Source of the DNA: a virus
Strand: one strand, 5' to 3'
Virus record (IMG/VR): IMGVR_UViG_3300036801_000312
Coordinates: 1 to 38,010 of that record
Length of the DNA: 38,010 bases
Positions within the stretch are counted from its first letter, which is position 1. Each line of letters begins with the position of its first letter. Shown in pieces: positions 1 to 38,010 of this stretch. The notes beneath the pieces are model-generated. The model was not told the DNA's origin. It was given only the letters and a program-made list of their open reading frames with translations, and did not search any database. Both the position numbers and the translations under genes were made by a program.

Positions 1-483
1 CGCCGAGCCTTGCCGGCCATACCGCGTCTCACACTGCCTCGCCTAAACCACCCATACGTAACCATGCCAGCCAAGCCTTGCCCCGACGACCTAGCCAGGC
101 CGCGCCACCCAAGCCGTGCCAGCCATGTCCCGCCCGACCAAACCCGAACCAACCGGACCAGGCCCAACCAGGCCAGCCCTGCCTTACACCACCTAACCTT
201 GCCCAGCCGTATCTTGCCCCGCCAGCCACACCGCGCCGAGCCGAGCCTTAACGTGCCACGGCATGTCACGCCGAACCGCGCCAGCCGCGACGCACCGCGC
301 CTTGCCTTGCCAAGACCCGCCTCGTCGTGCCACGCCCAACCAAGCCAGCCATACCCCGTCTAATCCCGCCCCGACCCAACGCGCCGGGCCGTGTCTCGCC
401 TAACCTTGCCAGCCCCGCCGCGCCGCGCCGCACCTAGCCCTGCCCCATCATGCCGGACCCAACCTTGCCAGCCATGCCATGCC
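1..483. repeat. Degenerate pentamer-like CC/GG quasi-repeat, non-coding
   Basis: No convincing gene lies here. On the plus strand a CC dinucleotide recurs every 4 to 6 bases, mostly every 5, with words such as GCCAG, CCATG, CCTTG and CCGCG; the other strand therefore shows GG every ~5 bases. The pattern ends sharply at the stop codon of the leftward gene at 484. Because leftward transcription from the early operon would run into it, the RNA would be the GG-rich strand, with runs of the form GGNNN. Open frames in this block exist because the repeat lacks stop codons and have no protein-like composition. Function is unknown. Confidence 0.8.
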
Positions 484-1017
484 TCATACCGTCTTGCCCT
501 GATCGCCGATGACAAGCGAGCAGACCGGGGCGAACTCCTCCCACTGCCAGCGCGCGTAGGTCTCGACAAAGCGGCGCAAGCTTTGCCAGGCGTCCTCCTT
601 CAGCCGGGCCTGCATCTGCTCATCGCCCGCCACCTCCGCCGCGAAGTGATAGCTGCGTTTGTTCCCGCCCTTATCGTCCTCGCCCGTCACCACCACCGAA
701 TAGAGCGCCTTCTCCACCACCTTCTGCCCGTCCTGCATCGTGACGACCTCCAGGTGATTGAGTATCTGTCTCGCCTCGTGCAGCCGGTACTTCGCCGCCG
801 CCTCCTCGGTGTTCCACGTGAAAAGCGCGTGCAGTACACTCTCGGGGTCGCCGGCACGCAGGAGCAAATTCGAGGGCGTGATAGTCAGCCCCTCCGAGAG
901 CATCGATTCCACCTCGCAGCCCACCTGCTGCGCCGTCTTCACGCCGTACTTTGCCCCGAGCGCCGGACTGTAGCGCACCGCCCGCGTCAACGCCGCTTCC
1001 AGAACCTTTCGTCTCAT
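484..1017 (-). CDS. Conserved phage early protein of unknown function, 177 aa
   Basis: Last gene of the leftward early operon. The ATG follows a strong GGAGGAGAAAGC Shine-Dalgarno stretch and overlaps the stop of the upstream gene as ATGA, so the two are translationally coupled. The middle shows the segment LHALFTWNTEEAAAKYRL followed by an EARQ stretch. I recognise this pattern (LH..F.W....AA..YRL..AR) from small phage proteins encoded near recombination and replication genes whose role is not established. There is no signal peptide or membrane segment. It is most likely a cytoplasmic accessory to DNA metabolism, but that is inferred from position only. Confidence 0.8.
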   Translation of the reverse strand: MRRKVLEAALTRAVRYSPALGAKYGVKTAQQVGCEVESMLSEGLTITPSNLLLRAGDPESVLHALFTWNTEEAAAKYRLHEARQILNHLEVVTMQDGQKVVEKALYSVVVTGEDDKGGNKRSYHFAAEVAGDEQMQARLKEDAWQSLRRFVETYARWQWEEFAPVCSLVIGDQGKTV

Positions 1018-1533: not shown

Positions 1534-2418
1534 TCAGTGTCCACGGGCCTGCCGCAAAGCGAGCGCGCGCTCCGTCGCTTCCGCCGCCGCCGCCAGGCGC
1601 TTCTGCCTTGCATTATCCTCCAGCGACGCTCTGCCACCCTGCGTCTCCGAGAGCAGCGTCATCTCCCGCTGCTGCTCCCGCTTGCGCTGCTGCTTGAGCT
1701 GCGGAGGCAAAAAGCCTCCCTTGTGTACAAAGGCGATGGCCCAGGCCACCGGGTTCTCGATTTTCGTGGTCGAGTACGGCATCGATTCCAGCGCGTCCCG
1801 CCAGCACTGCTCCCCCTGCCGGGTAACGCGTCGTATCGCCTCGCCCCGTTCCATGCCTATCGCCACCAGCTGCTCCACGACCGTCAGGGGAACCGAGGCG
1901 CGCAGTTCCGTCGTCTCCCCATCGGATCGGATCGGATCGGATTCCGAATTCTTATATATATCCGAATCGGATCGGATCGGATCGGGATCGGATTCGGAAT
2001 CCGAACCGCGTGCGCCCGCGCGAGGAAGCGTGACAGAGGGCGTGACGGAGGGCGTGACGGAGGGCGTGACATCGTGACCATTTTTGCCGTTGCGATGCCG
2101 CTGCTGACGCTGGCGGGCCGCCTCCTTCGCGTCTGGGGAAGGGGTCGCGTGCGCGCGTGTAAAGCGCAGGGCGATTGCGTCCGGCAGAATAAGGCCCATC
2201 TCCCGAAGCACGGCCAGGTCCTTCTTGAACTGCCGCTCGCCCCGGTCCAGCTGCACCGCCCAGATGCCCTCCGTCCAGTGCGCCACGTCGTCCGGCTGCC
2301 AGAGCGTGCGTAACCGCTCTATGTCGGCGAGCAGCTTCCAGAGCCGCAATCGCCGTCGCATAAGGTACTGACAGACGGGGTCCGTCCAGAGCGCATCCGG
2401 CAGGCACGTGGTATGCAT
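1534..2418 (-). CDS. Replication initiator-like protein (DnaD/O-like layout), 294 aa
   Basis: Probable phage replication initiator or replisome organiser. The N-terminal ~90 residues look like a winged-helix DNA-binding domain ending in VLREMGLI. The linker is low-complexity, first a VTPS repeat and then Ser/Asp/Glu-rich. The C-terminal part (VEQLVAIGMERGEAIRRVTR, later IENPVAWAIAFVHKGG) resembles the C-terminal module of DnaD-like and plasmid Rep proteins, where a conserved NP(V/A)xW segment precedes the end. The start at 2418 is preferred because AAAGGA lies nine bases upstream; an ATG at 2427 touches that site and is less likely. The linker is encoded by tandem DNA repeats around an AT-rich island (see 1921-2077), the arrangement of an origin inside its own initiator gene as in lambda O. 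Confidence 0.7.
   Translation of the reverse strand: MHTTCLPDALWTDPVCQYLMRRRLRLWKLLADIERLRTLWQPDDVAHWTEGIWAVQLDRGERQFKKDLAVLREMGLILPDAIALRFTRAHATPSPDAKEAARQRQQRHRNGKNGHDVTPSVTPSVTPSVTLPRAGARGSDSESDPDPIRSDSDIYKNSESDPIRSDGETTELRASVPLTVVEQLVAIGMERGEAIRRVTRQGEQCWRDALESMPYSTTKIENPVAWAIAFVHKGGFLPPQLKQQRKREQQREMTLLSETQGGRASLEDNARQKRLAAAAEATERALALRQARGH
1921..2077. other. Candidate replication origin: iteron-like repeats and AT-rich island inside the initiator gene
   Basis: Tandem ATCGG pentamers fill 1921-1940 and 1965-1990. Between them is an AT-rich run (TTCTTATATATAT, 1949-1961) in an otherwise GC-rich genome. Two palindromes with a one-base centre flank it: ATCCGA-A-TCGGAT (1960-1972) and TTCGGA-A-TCCGAA (1993-2005). 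Next come three to four copies of a 12-bp direct repeat built on GTGACGGAGGGC (about 2028-2077). Repeats plus an AT-rich unwinding element in the linker of a replication initiator is the known layout of lambdoid and several Gram-positive phage origins. Origin function here is inferred. Confidence 0.55.
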
Positions 2419-8239: not shown

Positions 8240-8701
8240 TTATGTCTTCAAACGGCTTTCCCCACTCCCGTTTGCGCTTTGCTTCTGGCCCAGCTTGTCC
8301 ACCAGCAGGAGGTTCCCCAACCTCTCGATCAAGGGCTTCGCCGGCCCCAGGTCGTACCCTCCGCACATCTGCAGCTTGACCGCTGTCCGCAGTATCTCCA
8401 GGCACTCGATGCCAAGCAGTATCCAGACCGCCGCCTCCAGCTCCATCCAGTGCCCCATCGCCAGGGCCACCGCCGCCGCCACGCTGTAGAGCAGCACGAT
8501 CTGCACAAACCCGGTCAGGAAGCGCTGCACGCCGCTCCGCTGCTGTGTCTCCTTGCAGACCATCGCCCGGTAGGCGCCTGCCACGCTCGATATGACCAGG
8601 AACAGGAGCATCAGGTCGATAAGCCCCGGCAGGGAAGCGGGCGGCGGGCTGCCGATGCTGCCGGCGAGCCACGAGAGTACCGGGCGCGGACGCTCACCCA
8701 T
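8240..8701 (-). CDS. Holin, Phage_holin_4-like, 153 aa
   Basis: Probable holin that permeabilises the inner membrane at lysis. Hydrophobic segments occur at about 24-43 (LIDLMLLFLVISSVAGAYRA), 58-78 (FVQIVLLYSVAAAVALAMG) and 84-96 (AAVWILLGIECLE), followed by a polar tail. The order, with an early LIDL...VAG.YRA motif and a later ECLEIL segment, resembles the Phage_holin_4 family. The ATG at 8701 has AAGGGGAAGAGG directly upstream and overlaps the end of the small acidic gene before it. The endolysin is encoded some 5 kb upstream in the same operon. Confidence 0.7.
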   Translation of the reverse strand: MGERPRPVLSWLAGSIGSPPPASLPGLIDLMLLFLVISSVAGAYRAMVCKETQQRSGVQRFLTGFVQIVLLYSVAAAVALAMGHWMELEAAVWILLGIECLEILRTAVKLQMCGGYDLGPAKPLIERLGNLLLVDKLGQKQSANGSGESRLKT

Positions 8702-8852
8702 CCTCTTCCCCTTCCCGCGCGTGCGCCTCCACGCGCTCCTCTTCATCAGGCCAGGGCATCACGATCGGCAGGAAGGGCGGGACAGGCTGCGGGGAGTCGC
8801 CCGTCTCGTCCCGAATAGTCTCGGCCGGCAAATCCTGGGCTGCGTCCGACAT
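8694..8852 (-). CDS. Small acidic protein upstream of the holin, 52 aa
   Basis: ATG at 8852 with a strong GGGGAGAGG ribosome site. The frame ends by overlapping the holin start by eight bases. The sequence begins MSDAAQDLPAETIRDETG, has a proline-rich centre (PQPVPPFLPIVMPWPDE) and an acidic tail. Coupling to the holin suggests a lysis-timing role, but no family is recognised. Confidence 0.6.
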   Translation of the reverse strand: MSDAAQDLPAETIRDETGDSPQPVPPFLPIVMPWPDEEERVEAHAREGEEDG

Positions 8853-8866
8853 CCTGACCTCTCCCC

Positions 8867-8911
8867 GGACGTTATGGACACGGGCGTTATGGGCAAACGC
8901 CCTGAACGTCC
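8867..8911 (-). other. Nested hairpin after the tail-fibre gene
   Basis: In leftward RNA an outer GGACGT/ACGTCC pairing (8906-8911 with 8867-8872) encloses an inner seven-base GGGCGTT/AACGCCC stem. It begins directly after the fibre-gene stop and has no U-tract. An mRNA-stabilising or processing element at the fibre/lysis boundary is plausible. Confidence 0.45.
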
Positions 8912-8912
8912 T

Positions 8913-10370
8913 CTACGCGACCGCGATCTGGCCCGTCTTGACCGTTCCCGTCGCGTCCTTGACCCGCACGTTGACGAAGGCGTTCGCCGTGTTGTAGTAG
9001 AAGCAGAACTCGCCGTTAGCCAGGTCGGCCCCCACGGGAGAGTTGTTGTGCTGCACCAGGATGCCCTGGTACTGGATGCGCGTGTTGGTCGCCCCGGCCG
9101 CCCCTTTCGTCTGCAGCAGGTCGTGGGTCGCGCCCGCCGTGTCGGCCTGCAGCACGAGGAGCGGCCCCGTCTGCGAGGCGATGCCGTCCAGTTCGAGCGT
9201 GGTCGAGGCGACGTTTATCGGGATACTCTTCACCTGCATCGTCGCGGTCGGAATGACGTTTGCGCCCAGGTTGAAGCCGAACCTGCCATCCCCCGTGAAC
9301 CTTACCTTCTCGGCCGTGATGCTCGGCAAGTTCCAGGTGGTCATGAACACCAGGTCTACCGGAATGCGGCCCGTCCCCGCCGTGTCCGGCGTCCCCCGAA
9401 TGACCGCGCGAATGACCGCGGAGTTAAAGAAGGCGCTGCCGTCGTGGAAACTCAGGTTCAGGCTGGACAGGTCCCCGCTTACCACCACCAGCGGCGACGC
9501 TGCCGTCCCTCTGGCGCGGCGCAGGAACCACGCCGGGTTCCCCGTGGAGTAGGTGTCGAACATCGGGGAGGCGTCGCCTGACGCCCCCGAATAGACCGTG
9601 TGAAACATCTTCAAGGGGTTGCTTGTCCCCAGGCCCACGCGCCCCAGGCTCGTCAGGCGCATCCTCTCGATGGGAACGTCCGTGCCGTCGCTCGTGCCGT
9701 ACACGATGTCGGAGGCGACCCCGAAACCCGTCGGCGCGGCCGTCGTGATCGACTCGATGGAGGTGCCCTGCCGCCACGCGGTCCCGTCGTATCCCCCGCC
9801 GAACAAACTCCACAGTTTATCCCCCGAGACCAGCACCCCCGGCGCGGCGAGCGTGCCCCTGGCGGAGCGCATCGTCATCACGGGCCGGTTCCCCGCTCCG
9901 TAGGCGCTCGCGATCAAACTCGCGTTGGCCGTGTCCACTATCTCCAGCTTCGCGCCCGGCGCGCTCGTGCCCAGCCCCAGCAGACCCGCCGAGGTCAGGC
10001 GCATCGCCTCGGAGAGTGTCGCCACGTCCGGCGCCGTGTACCAGATATGCGAGGCCGCGTAGGCCTGGATGGACCCCCGGTCCGTGGCCGAGGCGTTCCC
10101 GAGCAGCGTCAGCGCCTCGCCCGGTCCCGTCCCGCCCGACACCTGCTGCCCGCCCTGCCGCCCCGCCTGCAAGACGTCCCCGTAGGTTCCGATCGGGACC
10201 GGAGGCTGCGTCGCCGCTGGAGGCACGGCCGCAGCCGCGCCCTTCAGCGTCGCGACCTGCGTCGAGAGCGCGCCCACCTGCGTCTCCAGCGCCTTGATGC
10301 GCGTCAGCAGGAACTGCAGCTGCACGTCGAGCGCGTCGTTGCCGCTGCTCTGTATCGCCCAGTCGCTCAT
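8913..10370 (-). CDS. Tail fibre/spike-like protein, 485 aa
   Basis: Probable receptor-binding fibre or spike. Residues 15-45 form a heptad-like coiled coil (LDVQLQFLLTRIKALETQVG), followed by an Ala/Pro linker. The body carries repeated units of the form (M)RLTSxGxxGLGTSxP (RLTSAGLLGLGTSAP, RLTSLGRVGLGTSNP, and the degenerate RFTGDGRFGFNLG). This motif recurs in trimeric phage and bacterial fibres. The C-terminal ~100 residues (GPLLVLQADTAGATHDLLQT onward) look like a terminal beta domain. It lies between a block of small genes and the lysis genes. Confidence 0.8.
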   Translation of the reverse strand: MSDWAIQSSGNDALDVQLQFLLTRIKALETQVGALSTQVATLKGAAAAVPPAATQPPVPIGTYGDVLQAGRQGGQQVSGGTGPGEALTLLGNASATDRGSIQAYAASHIWYTAPDVATLSEAMRLTSAGLLGLGTSAPGAKLEIVDTANASLIASAYGAGNRPVMTMRSARGTLAAPGVLVSGDKLWSLFGGGYDGTAWRQGTSIESITTAAPTGFGVASDIVYGTSDGTDVPIERMRLTSLGRVGLGTSNPLKMFHTVYSGASGDASPMFDTYSTGNPAWFLRRARGTAASPLVVVSGDLSSLNLSFHDGSAFFNSAVIRAVIRGTPDTAGTGRIPVDLVFMTTWNLPSITAEKVRFTGDGRFGFNLGANVIPTATMQVKSIPINVASTTLELDGIASQTGPLLVLQADTAGATHDLLQTKGAAGATNTRIQYQGILVQHNNSPVGADLANGEFCFYYNTANAFVNVRVKDATGTVKTGQIAVA

Positions 10371-23357: not shown

Positions 23358-23663
23358 TCAACTACCTTCCGATAATTTCTTCCGCTCGGCCCAGGCGGCT
23401 CGGTCCGTTTCGTACCTCTTCGCGTCCGCGCGGTCCATCTCCAGCTTGTCCTTATCGCTGTAGGTCTGGCCGTCCTTCAGCCACCAATACTTGTTATCCG
23501 CCCGGAGCCGATCCGGCTGCCCGATGACCTGGGGCATCGTGAAGAGCCGTCCCATCACCCCGTCGCAGATCGGGCATACGAACTCCGAGGGAGCCTGCCC
23601 GACCGGGAAGTTCTCATCGACCCGCCATCGGCACTCCCGGCACTCGTACAGATATTTTGCCAT
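23358..23663 (-). CDS. FmdB-like zinc-ribbon protein, 101 aa
   Basis: The N-terminal ribbon is MAKYLYECRECRWRVDENF with CxxC at C8/C11 and a second CPIC at C30/C33, the FmdB-type putative regulatory zinc ribbon. The rest is helical and charged (YWWLKDGQTYSDKDKLEMDR, DRAAWAERKKLSEGS). The ATG at 23663 overlaps the radical SAM stop as TGATG, so it is coupled to that enzyme. It may be its partner or a DNA-binding packaging accessory. Confidence 0.8.
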   Translation of the reverse strand: MAKYLYECRECRWRVDENFPVGQAPSEFVCPICDGVMGRLFTMPQVIGQPDRLRADNKYWWLKDGQTYSDKDKLEMDRADAKRYETDRAAWAERKKLSEGS

Positions 23664-24688
23664 CACATCGGCCCCCCTGGAGAGAACCTGAGAAACTCCT
23701 GCGCCAGTCGCTTGACGGCTATCTCCCGAAACGGCGGCGCTTCACCTTTGCGGTTGCTGTACTCCCAGATAGGAATCGCCCGCCAGATACCCGGTCGGTT
23801 GTAGTAACGGCAGAAGTCCTTGCCCTTCTGGTAAGTCCAGTCGAAGCGCGGTTTCAGCTCTTGCGGATCACCCAACCAGTGAAGCGGCAGCACATACTGA
23901 CAGTGCGGCTCCCCGCCCCATTCGATGACGCGCTGCGCCCGTGCGTAACAGGCTTCCACCGGCTCGTTGCCCACGAGGACATAGACCCGTTTCTTGCGCG
24001 CAGACACCTCTTTCAAGAGACTCATCATCCGATGCACGTCTTCGGTCTCGCTCGTCTCGTCGTAGGCAAAGCGCCAGGGGCCGCGTAGCACCGGCTTCCA
24101 ACGCAAGTAGGTCTCAGCATCGAAGGAGCGCGGCTCGAAGCCGCTGTTGGCATCCAGCAGCGTGACACCCGTCTCCTGATAACGCCGGAGGATATGCTCC
24201 TGAAACTCCACGGGCAGCGCGGACAGGTTGTTGTCACACAGCACCGGCGCCGGCTGGAAGTCCGAGTAGAGCGTGAATGTTTTCCCCTCCATGCGCGGCA
24301 CGATGCAGAAATAGCATCCGACCGGACAGCCACGGCTTGCGAAGGTCATGCGGTAATCCCCGCGCTGACGCTCGAACCTGTCGTCCACGCCGCGCTGCGC
24401 CGTCATCCCGGTTTCGCGCTTCCACCAGTGGTGGAGCATATACATTCCCGGCCCACCGCACCAGACGTCCGCATCCCCCTTCACACGCAGTGCGATCTGG
24501 CGTGCCAGGGGCGCGTGCCAGGAGAAGATGACCGACAGACACACCAGATCGTAGCCCAGGCAGAGCAGCGGTCCAGGGTCGCCACAGGAGAAGTCTACGC
24601 AGTGCCCCTCCTGACGCAGGTAGTCCGCGAGTTTTGCCGCGCCCAGGTTGTAGTGGCTGGCGGAGCAGTTGACTACCAGAGTGTTCAC
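23663..24688 (-). CDS. Radical SAM enzyme with N-terminal Rossmann/B12-like domain, 341 aa
   Basis: The radical SAM signature CPVGCYFC (C121, C125, C128; CxxxCxxC) should bind a [4Fe-4S] cluster that cleaves S-adenosylmethionine. Residues 1-110 look like a Rossmann, B12-binding-like module (LVVNCSASHYNLGAAKLADY ... YDLVCLSVIFSWHAP ... ADVWCGGPG), although the usual DxHxxG cobalamin motif is not visible. Conserved-looking core strands follow (TLLDANSGFEP, RRVYVL-like segment, LHWLGDPQELKPRFDWTY). The substrate is unknown. The GTG start overlaps the terminase stop as GTGA. Its place between large terminase and portal is unusual for an enzyme; it might modify DNA, protein or tRNA. Confidence 0.85.
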   Translation of the reverse strand: MNTLVVNCSASHYNLGAAKLADYLRQEGHCVDFSCGDPGPLLCLGYDLVCLSVIFSWHAPLARQIALRVKGDADVWCGGPGMYMLHHWWKRETGMTAQRGVDDRFERQRGDYRMTFASRGCPVGCYFCIVPRMEGKTFTLYSDFQPAPVLCDNNLSALPVEFQEHILRRYQETGVTLLDANSGFEPRSFDAETYLRWKPVLRGPWRFAYDETSETEDVHRMMSLLKEVSARKKRVYVLVGNEPVEACYARAQRVIEWGGEPHCQYVLPLHWLGDPQELKPRFDWTYQKGKDFCRYYNRPGIWRAIPIWEYSNRKGEAPPFREIAVKRLAQEFLRFSPGGPM

Positions 24689-26633: not shown

Positions 26634-26654
26634 AGGTTGCCGCACTCCTCATTC

Positions 26655-26770
26655 AACCACAAAGGACACAAAGGACACGAAGACACACAAAGACACCCAA
26701 AATTCTTCTTCTTCTGCTTCTCTTTGTGTCCTTTGTGTCCTTTGTGGTTCAAATGTATCCTTTGTGGTTA
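26655..26770. repeat. MITE-like inverted repeat with ~29-bp arms
   Basis: The left arm (26655-26683) starts AACCACAAAGGACACAAAGG. The right arm (26721-26749) is its reverse complement with one mismatch in 29. The 37-base loop is pyrimidine-rich (CTTCTTCTTCTGCTTC). A partial third copy (TCCTTTGTGGTTA) lies at 26758-26770. It is the largest gene-free spot between small terminase and the giant protein gene, in an operon whose other junctions mostly overlap. The A/C-rich composition differs from its neighbours. In RNA it would form a long hairpin, so a transcription or processing effect is also possible. Confidence 0.8.
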
Positions 26771-35801: not shown

Positions 35802-36689
35802 TTAGCCCCTTCCGTAGTTCGGGGTCGCGTAGGAGGACCCGCCGCCAAACCACTGCGCGCGCTGCCTCTCTGCCTCCAGCTCCGCCGGAGACCTTCCCGT
35901 AAAGGTTCCCGTCCCGAGTGGCAGCTGGTAGGGCCGCTGGAACCCCAGCGCGCCTCCCCCCTCCGATTGTTGTATCACCGGCAGGTAGGGACTGGTAATG
36001 TGCTGCAGGGTAGGCGAGGCCGGCTGAAACGTCTGCATAGCGGCCTGCGCCGTGCTGCCCGTCCCGTAACTTCCCAGGTTTCCGACCCCGTAACGCAGCG
36101 CGTTCCCCGGCAGGTTCTGCGCCTGGTTCACCGTCCCTTGCTGCACCGGCAGCGTCGCCCGGTACGCGTTGGCGCCGGATCGCGCCAGGTTCGCCTGCGA
36201 GAGCGCCCCGAGGAAACTCTGCAGCCCCCCCGTCGCCGTGCTGATGTCGTTGTAGGACTGACCCACGTTCTGCCCGGCCACCCCCAGCTGCATGTTCGCC
36301 AGGTTCTGCTGCTGCTGGGCGTGCATCTGCGCCGCCGCCTGGTAGTTGCGGCTCGCCAGGTCCGTCAGGTTCGAGCCGATCTCACGCTGGCCGAGCGCCA
36401 GCGCCCCTCCCACCGCCGACGGATTGTAGACGCCCCCGGCCGCCAGGTTCGCCCCCATCGACGATCCCAACGCCCGCAGGGCATCCGCCCCCTGACCGGA
36501 CGCCGCCATCAGCCCCTGCCCCCCCGAGGAGAGCGCCTGCTGGTACGCCGTGTCCGACGCCCTGCCGTAGTTCGCCAGAGCCGCCTGCTGCGCGGCCTGC
36601 GCCTGCCGACGCTCGTTCTCCGCCGTCAGCGCCCCGTACAGGCTGCCCACGCCTCCGACCACGCCACCCAATATGTCCAGAAAGCTCAT
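35802..36689 (-). CDS. Putative internal virion/ejection protein (T7 gp14-like in character), 295 aa
   Basis: Opens MSFLDILGGVVGGVGSLYGA, a short Gly-rich hydrophobic segment, followed by long Ala/Gln/Gly helices (ENERRQAQAAQQAALANYGR, QAAAQMHAQQQQNLANMQLG). The C-terminus is Pro/Gly-rich (RPYQLPLGTGTFTGRSPAEL). This composition and the position before a transglycosylase-containing protein recall podovirus ejection proteins that insert into the host envelope. Sequence homology to a named family was not recognised. GCGAGGTGCAGC precedes the ATG. Confidence 0.7.
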   Translation of the reverse strand: MSFLDILGGVVGGVGSLYGALTAENERRQAQAAQQAALANYGRASDTAYQQALSSGGQGLMAASGQGADALRALGSSMGANLAAGGVYNPSAVGGALALGQREIGSNLTDLASRNYQAAAQMHAQQQQNLANMQLGVAGQNVGQSYNDISTATGGLQSFLGALSQANLARSGANAYRATLPVQQGTVNQAQNLPGNALRYGVGNLGSYGTGSTAQAAMQTFQPASPTLQHITSPYLPVIQQSEGGGALGFQRPYQLPLGTGTFTGRSPAELEAERQRAQWFGGGSSYATPNYGRG

Positions 36690-36961: not shown

Positions 36962-36987
36962 CTTTTTTTCTTCGCATAGAGCGAGCG
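36962..36987. repeat. Direct repeat, copy B (after the Mom-like gene)
   Basis: 26 bases beginning CTTTTTTTCTTCGCATAGAG on the plus strand. It abuts the stop codon of the Mom-like gene and matches 37507-37532 at 24 of 26 positions. Confidence 0.85.
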
Positions 36988-37500
36988 TCACGACTTCGGC
37001 GGCCACTGCCAGATGCGCTTGCTGCGCCCCCGTCTCCCACTGCGGGCATCCGACCCGCTCCGACTGGCCCCCACACACTGCCATCCGTCAAACCGATACG
37101 TGTTGCCACTGTGCAAGTTGGCATCCTGATACGAGATGGCGTACTCGAAGGGCATCTCCGGAAAGACAAACTCCCGCCACAATCGCAGCGCCACACGACA
37201 CAGACCCGGACGGCAAGCGCAGAGCCGGGACAACTCGCACGCGCTCTCCCGCGTCAGATACTCCATCCCTGGACCCAACTGAGGCGTTATCAGACGGCTC
37301 GCCACCGTCACCGCCATCGGTTCGTCCCCATGCCGCAACACGTGACACCACTCCGCCTGCCCGAAGCACGGCCGGTTCAGCGCGCCCATCCGGTGCCCCC
37401 ACTGCACCAGCAACTCGTTCGCCTCCGGCAGACAGATGCTCTCGAAGGTTACCAGCGGAAACAGTCCCACCCCTCCCTCCTCTCTCACTCCCCACCTCAT
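36988..37500 (-). CDS. Mom-like GNAT-fold DNA-modification candidate, 170 aa
   Basis: The ATG at 37500 has AAGGA six bases upstream. The sequence order resembles Mom-type phage acyltransferases: GHRMGALNRPCFGQAEWCHV (36-55), EPMAVTVASRLITP, EYLTRESACELSRLCACRPG, a helix (CRVALRLWREF), then YAISYQDANLHSGNTYRFDG and W-QCVGASRSG, and a basic end (ARSGRRGRSKRIWQWPP). The core SY.D...H.G..Y...GW..vG..R with a terminal K..W is the part I rely on. Mom of phage Mu converts adenine in DNA to a carbamoylmethyl-modified form that resists restriction. Whether this protein does the same is inferred. It is bracketed by 26-bp direct repeats and precedes the late promoter, like a separable moron. Confidence 0.72.
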   Translation of the reverse strand: MRWGVREEGGVGLFPLVTFESICLPEANELLVQWGHRMGALNRPCFGQAEWCHVLRHGDEPMAVTVASRLITPQLGPGMEYLTRESACELSRLCACRPGLCRVALRLWREFVFPEMPFEYAISYQDANLHSGNTYRFDGWQCVGASRSGSDARSGRRGRSKRIWQWPPKS

Positions 37501-37506
37501 TATGTC

Positions 37507-37532
37507 CTTTTTTTCTTGGCATAGAGCGAACG
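37507..37532. repeat. Direct repeat, copy A (before the Mom-like gene)
   Basis: 26 bases, CTTTTTTTCTTGGCATAGAG onward. It contains the polypurine stretch that provides the Mom-like ribosome site on the minus strand; copy B stands at 36962-36987. Confidence 0.85.
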
Positions 37533-37676: not shown

Positions 37677-37708
37677 GAACTCTTGATAATGGGGATTATA
37701 GAGAGTTC
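37677..37708 (-). promoter_or_regulatory. Palindrome overlapping a possible leftward promoter
   Basis: A symmetric 32-base element: GAACTC...ATAAT-GGGG-ATTAT...GAGTTC. On the minus strand it contains TATAAT (plus-strand 37695-37700); the matching -35 (TTCTGA, 16-base spacer) is poor. An operator over a weak or activated promoter feeding the Mom-like gene would fit. Confidence 0.4.
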
Positions 37709-38010
37709 CCCCCTCGTCAGAAGGGCGGGAAGCATTATCAGGAGCGAGCGCGTGGGCGTCCGCCTTGCGCCAGCGCGGAGGAGCAAGAGAGACGCCGGAC
37801 GGTCTAAGCCGCTTGCTCTAGACCGTACGGACGTGGACGCCATAAGAGGACGGGCGTACGCGCGCGCCCGTGTGTGTGTGAGGGCAAACCACGCGGCTAG
37901 GGCAGACCTCGGGGAAAACTATTTTCCGGGGTGGGGAACTATCCGGTCATTCCATCTGTATTAGGCTATATCCGTATTCCAATACGGAATACAGCGACGA
38001 GAGGGGAATG
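37709..38010. other. Non-coding right end with several palindromes
   Basis: No convincing gene. Inverted repeats: ACGGTCTA/TAGACCGT (37799-37806 with 37819-37826), GGAAAA/TTTTCC (37913-37918 with 37922-37927), and two overlapping ones near the end, CCGTATT-CC-AATACGG (37972-37987) and GTATTCC-N5-GGAATAC (37974-37992). The region between 37543 and 37676 is a GC-rich stretch with C-runs and shows nothing I can name. If the genome is circular this joins the pentamer-repeat block at position 1. Confidence 0.6.

What the first reader, a model, noticed from the sequence alone, without database searches (positions are those of the whole stretch)
36962..37532. Mom-like gene exactly bracketed by 26-bp direct repeats
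Repeat copies (24 of 26 identical) lie immediately before the ribosome site and immediately after the stop. This is the structure of a swappable cassette: recombination between repeats would remove the gene cleanly and leave one repeat beside the late promoter. The gene itself resembles Mom-type DNA modification enzymes that defeat restriction.
Basis: partly seen in the sequence, partly recalled or inferred. Interest (0 to 1): 0.7.

Follow-up and report, generated by a model that had tools for sequence, protein, structure and literature searches.

The report
Repeat-bracketed Mom-type phage gene cassette
A bacterial virus carries a gene for a Mom-type enzyme, which in the known case disguises viral DNA from host defences; the gene sits neatly between two copies of a short repeat, and in another virus a related gene is inserted the same way while a sister virus has the untouched one-repeat site.

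Summary
Two 26-nt direct repeats (24/26) lie at 37507-37532 and 36962-36987. The first overlaps the Shine-Dalgarno site of a 170-aa gene and the second begins at the base after its stop codon. There is no third copy in the record even at 9 mismatches, and simulated sequence never exceeded 20/26.

The gene is Mom-type. A pattern scan fetched 65 distinct homologues (36-64% identical). 53 of the 66 family members hit PHROG 1384 "Mom-like". The profile matches a Mu-Mom-based profile (hhalign 94%). The AlphaFold model (pLDDT 89.6) is a GNAT fold that matches the solved Mu Mom, 8bv8. It is a divergent subfamily: Mu residue S124 has no clear counterpart.

The phage itself has no close relative in the collections, so its own empty allele could not be sought. 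A sister case was found. In locus L071 a Mom of this subfamily is bracketed by an exact 21-bp direct repeat, and near-identical phage L275 carries the empty site with one copy; three further relatives are also empty. Flanking repeats are otherwise rare (2 of 60 relatives), so they are not a fixed regulatory partner of the gene.

Best reading: an accessory gene acquired by short-homology recombination. Excision of this copy and modification of the DNA are inferred, not shown.

The parts
36988..37500 (-). Mom-type GNAT gene, 170 aa, ATG start
   Evidence: translation; phrog_1384 E=2e-4; family A4; AF2 pLDDT 89.6; Foldseek to 8bv8; only its minus-strand frame scores as coding here
37507..37532 (-). 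upstream copy of the 26-nt direct repeat; its last 3 bases are part of the SD AAGGA (37509-37505)
36962..36987 (-). downstream copy of the 26-nt direct repeat, starting at the base after the stop codon
36905..36933 (-). sigma-70-like promoter TTGACA-17-TATACT, presumed late promoter, 28 nt beyond the downstream repeat
   Evidence: 11 of 12 consensus bases; 0.3 expected in shuffles
35802..36689 (-). first gene of the late (virion) block downstream of that promoter, 295 aa, no family match
37695..37700 (-). TATAAT, possible -10 of a weak promoter for mom (inferred; poor -35)
   Evidence: sequence; did not pass the promoter scan
37680..37744 (.). inverted repeat CTCTTGATAATG ... CATTATCAGGAG (arms 37680-37691 and 37733-37744) around the TATAAT, operator-like (inferred)
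   Evidence: perfect arms only here

Best explanation
The gene is a Mom-type, GNAT-fold DNA-modification enzyme carried as an accessory gene ('moron') at the front of the phage's late region. It most likely entered the genome as a unit by recombination at a short stretch of homology, which left a copy of that stretch on each side. One copy sits at the ribosome-binding site and one right after the stop, so loss by recombination between them would remove 545 bp and leave one repeat just upstream of the late promoter. SHOWN: the repeats, the gene, its family and fold, and for a homologue in another phage the filled and empty alleles with two and one repeat copies. INFERRED: that the same process made the repeats here, that the cassette can still be lost, and that the enzyme modifies adenines in phage DNA and so blocks restriction.
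For: Repeats abut both ends of exactly one gene, with no third copy. The Mom subfamily is scattered: large same-strand neighbours include terminase, DNA primase, DNA methyltransferase and RecE-like exonuclease, and one member is on a conjugative plasmid. L071 versus L275: flanks 99.6-99.9% (left) and 96% (right) identical, interrupted by 718 bp holding mom, with the 21-mer ACCGTCCCCAAATACATCGCC twice in L071 and once in L275; L276-L278 are also empty, so the empty state looks ancestral; no Mom elsewhere in those records. The phage encodes its own RecT; RecT/Red-beta-type recombinases drive phage mosaicism at short, diverged homologies (PMC3945230). No inverted repeats lie at the cassette ends, arguing against a transposon.
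Against: No close relative of this phage was found, so no empty allele is known here. 26 bp with 2 mismatches is below the minimum of 30 bp given for Red-beta in PMC3945230. Codon usage of mom (0.225) is below the structural genes (about 0.39-0.49) but like other non-structural genes of the phage, so it is not clearly foreign. 58 of 60 homologues with enough flank lack repeats above the control maximum. In L071 the right flank is 96% and the left above 99% identical to L275, so that event may be an exchange with a related phage rather than a simple insertion.
Confidence: 0.6

Rival explanations
1. The repeat is a regulatory element used twice (protein-binding site, start-associated sequence or transcript leader), one copy serving mom and one serving the late promoter; the gene lies between two control sites by layout, not by insertion.
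For: Both copies are on the same strand and upstream of a transcribed unit; the upstream copy overlaps the SD; repeated start-associated sequences exist in Cluster K mycobacteriophages (PMC3203893).
Against: Spacing differs: copy 1 is 6 nt before ATG with no promoter after it; copy 2 is 28 nt before a -35 box and about 270 nt before the next ATG. No further copies before other genes even at 9 mismatches, whereas the Cluster K repeats occur throughout those genomes. No significant RNA fold at either copy (z about -0.1 to -0.2). The repeat core has no hit in viral contigs.
Confidence: 0.2
2. Internal duplication: a [leader+gene] unit was once tandemly duplicated and the second gene later lost, so that copy 2 is an orphan ribosome-site leader.
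For: Copy 1 is the gene's own leader and overlaps its SD; the bases after both copies are purine-rich and loosely alike.
Against: Similarity after the repeat is not above shuffled sequence (fraction 0.12); no minus-strand frame after copy 2 fits the phage's codon usage.
Confidence: 0.12
3. Target-site duplication by a transposase or other dedicated mobile element.
For: Direct repeats flank a single gene, as after transposition.
Against: No inverted repeats at the cassette ends and no room for a transposase between the repeats, which hold only mom; repeat lengths differ between the two cases (26 and 21 bp) and exceed usual target duplications (own knowledge).
Confidence: 0.04

Closest known systems
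Mom of phage Mu (PDB 8bv8, 'Methylcarbamoylase mom')
   Same: GNAT fold (TM-score 0.62 by query length); E-L-x-R, S-x-x-D and G-x-x-Y positions align; accessory phage gene
   Different: 170 versus 241 aa; Mu S124 and D116 have no counterpart in the profile alignment; no overlapping com gene found; Mu's mom is not known to be repeat-bracketed (own knowledge)
Mom-like DNA modification proteins of PHROG 1384
   Same: 53 of 66 members of this subfamily match (best 7.5e-11)
   Different: The subfamily has its own near-invariant block (ELSRLCA...CRVALRLWRE...SYQDxxxHxGxxYRFDGW), and the window's protein meets no Pfam or NCBIfam model
Phage morons and mosaic gene acquisition at short homology (PMC3945230)
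   Same: Single accessory gene with its own ribosome site; the phage encodes a RecT
   Different: Here the presumed short homology is visible as direct repeats on both sides of the gene
Start-associated sequences of Cluster K mycobacteriophages (PMC3203893)
   Same: Short repeat overlapping the SD
   Different: Only two copies here, one of them not at a start codon

Membership tests
Mom family (GNAT DNA modification) | GNAT fold | tested here: met
   AF2 pLDDT 89.6, pTM 0.82; 189 PDB matches at E<=0.001, the top ones GNAT, Mu Mom 8bv8 at rank 10
Mom family (GNAT DNA modification) | Sequence relationship to known Mom proteins | tested here: met
   phrog_1384 E=2e-4 alone, 53 of 66 of the subfamily; hhalign 94.2%, E=1e-7. 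Single-sequence comparisons alone are not significant
Mom family (GNAT DNA modification) | E-L-x-R, S-x-x-D and G-x-x-Y residues invariant in the Mom alignment | tested here: met
   E89 L90 R92, S123, D126, G132, Y135 in the window; invariant or nearly so in 66 homologues
Mom family (GNAT DNA modification) | Ser124 of Mu Mom (the solved S124A is titled an inactive mutant) | tested here: inconclusive
   The profile alignment has a 7-residue gap there and pairs S124 with P98; the alignment is loose and Cys101 lies nearby; no structural superposition was possible
Mom family (GNAT DNA modification) | Modifies adenine in phage DNA and protects it from restriction | not testable with these tools
   needs virion DNA or expressed protein
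Repeat-bracketed removable cassette | Direct repeats at both gene borders | tested here: met
Repeat-bracketed removable cassette | Empty single-repeat allele in a relative of this phage | tested here: inconclusive
   no close relative found; shown only for the homologue in L071/L275
Repeat-bracketed removable cassette | Excision at read level | not testable with these tools
   no reads available
Start-associated sequence (Cluster K type) | Many copies, each just before a start codon | tested here: not met
   two copies only, one not before a start codon

The most novel reading that the evidence does not exclude
Mom-type genes of this subfamily travel between unrelated phages as minimal one-gene cassettes bounded by short direct repeats, gained and lost by phage recombinases at 20-26 bp of homology, giving a population-level on/off switch for DNA modification.
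Probability: 0.15. Interest if true: 0.65.

Novelty: new member of a known kind. Interest (0 to 1): 0.42.

Why it matters
How single accessory genes enter phage genomes is usually invisible because the borders have decayed. Here one gene has visible borders, and a homologue elsewhere offers a natural before/after pair. Mom-type modification blocks many restriction enzymes in the case of Mu (own knowledge), so gain or loss of the gene may change sensitivity to restriction in one step. The divergent subfamily without a clear equivalent of Mu's S124 could also inform how Mom catalysis works.

Tried and rejected
The search for related loci with the Mom, terminase, first late gene and capsid proteins found no relative in viral contigs; its exact 8-mer seeds miss even 60%-identical homologues, as the motif pattern scan then showed. 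Capsid-alignment and terminase-alignment scans gave only distant relatives of about 23-37% identity. The repeat core has no hit in viral contigs. The cassette region against the phage collection gave nothing relevant. L029's 20/22 flanking repeat lies inside two coding regions and is not used. L108's 113-bp repeat begins at a contig end, so it may be an assembly effect and is not used. L097's 16/17 repeat is coding and within the control range. An RNA hairpin at the mom start is not above shuffles. An overlapping alternative reading frame (a Com-like arrangement) is not supported by codon usage. I considered a transposon and found no inverted repeats at the cassette ends and no transposase between the repeats.

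Full report
WHAT IS THERE. The window is a whole IMG/VR virus record of 38,010 bases, classed linear. On the minus strand a 170-aa gene runs from ATG at 37500 to TGA at 36988. Two direct repeats of 26 nt, 24 identical, lie at 37507-37532 and 36962-36987. The upstream copy ends six bases before the ATG and shares three bases with the Shine-Dalgarno sequence AAGGA; the downstream copy begins at the base after the stop codon. The record has no third copy, even at nine mismatches. Simulated sequence of the same dinucleotide content never gave more than 20 of 26, and among 210 random segments of other phage loci none scored as high. Similarity does not extend significantly beyond either end. The only sigma-70-like promoter of the area, TTGACA-17-TATACT at 36933-36905, lies just past the downstream copy and faces the virion genes.

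PHAGE CONTEXT. The genome encodes a terminase, portal, capsid protein, a virion protein with a transglycosylase domain, RecT, an HTH repressor candidate and a weak match to serine recombinases, so it is probably temperate (inference). The mom frame is the only minus-strand frame in the area that fits the phage's codon usage, less well than the structural genes but like other accessory genes; no such frame follows between mom and 36689.

WHAT THE GENE IS. Alone, the protein matches only PHROG 1384, 'Mom-like DNA modification protein', at E=2e-4, and no Pfam or NCBIfam model. A DNA pattern for its motif YQDxxxHxGxxYRxxxW fetched 95 viral loci; 65 distinct proteins from them are 36-64% identical to it. 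Of these 66 proteins 53 match PHROG 1384, the best at 7.5e-11, and their profile matches a profile of nine Mom-type proteins including Mu Mom with 94% probability, E=1e-7. AlphaFold with this alignment gives pLDDT 89.6. Foldseek finds GNAT acetyltransferases and, at rank 10, the solved Mu Mom 8bv8 (identity of the entry). The E-L-x-R, S-x-x-D and G-x-x-Y positions are kept; Mu's S124, whose S124A mutant is deposited as inactive, falls next to a gap and has no clear counterpart. It is therefore a divergent Mom subfamily; that it makes the same modification is inferred.

WHERE THE FAMILY SITS. The neighbours vary: terminase large subunit, DNA primase, DNA methyltransferase, RecE-like exonuclease; one homologue is on a conjugative plasmid of Chelativorans. 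Apart from one distant terminase match, none of the 95 loci shares a gene with the window. This is the pattern of an accessory gene that moves.

ARE THE REPEATS PART OF THE GENE'S WAY OF MOVING? Most relatives have no flanking repeats: only L071 (score 21) and L029 (16) of 60 exceed the control maximum of 15, and L029's are coding. L071 is the telling case. There mom lies between portal and an S49-protease-like gene (names by my reading of the sequences, not by a database search), bracketed by an exact 21-mer. A search for relatives of that phage found L275, whose left flank is 99.6-99.9% and right flank 96% identical to L071 over kilobases, with the two flanks joined at a single copy of the 21-mer and no mom. 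Three further relatives (about 90% identical DNA) are also empty, and none of these four records has mom elsewhere in what is held. So a gene of this subfamily lies in one phage genome between direct repeats, and the single-copy site survives in its sisters. The differing flank identities suggest recombination with a related phage rather than a simple insertion.

FOR THE WINDOW ITSELF the same reading is the most economical, but it is by analogy. No relative close enough to show an empty site was found. The phage's RecT would fit: Rad52-like phage recombinases work at short diverged homology (PMC3945230), although 26 bp with two mismatches is below the size given there for Red-beta (30 bp). 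A regulatory role of the repeat is not excluded; it is made less likely by the different spacing of the two copies to start codon and promoter and by the absence of other copies, unlike the start-associated sequences of Cluster K phages (PMC3203893).

VERDICT. This is an accessory Mom-type gene with visible borders that are best read as recombination scars: a new member of a known kind, of moderate interest, with a useful natural before/after pair in another phage.

Noticed in passing
L071 (L274) 8609-9350 versus L275 around 4001: Natural filled/empty pair for a Mom-type gene: 718 bp start to start between exact 21-bp direct repeats at the start of a protease-like gene; the insert also leaves a 48-aa fused small ORF.
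   Followed up: yes
window 26650-26755: Near-perfect 32-nt inverted repeat (AACCACAAAGGACACAAAGGACAC...) between two late genes; folds at -53 kcal/mol, z = -8.7. May be a terminator or a host-derived palindromic element.
   Followed up: partly
window 37680-37744: Inverted repeat TGATAATG/CATTATCA around a TATAAT upstream of mom; looks like an operator with a weak promoter.
   Followed up: partly
window 23663-24688: Radical SAM protein gene (phrog_9298) inside the packaging cluster, between terminase and portal; role unknown.
   Followed up: no
window 1-500: GC-rich degenerate repeats built on GCC/CCTTGCC at the left end of the record (family D1).
   Followed up: no
window 1921-1998: Two short ATCGG pentamer arrays inside the gene at 1534-2427, possibly slippage-prone.
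   Followed up: no
L108, whole contig end and 3139 (minus strand): 113-bp near-perfect direct repeat (112/113) 3.1 kb apart around a mom-containing segment, one copy at the contig end; real cassette or assembly effect.
   Followed up: partly
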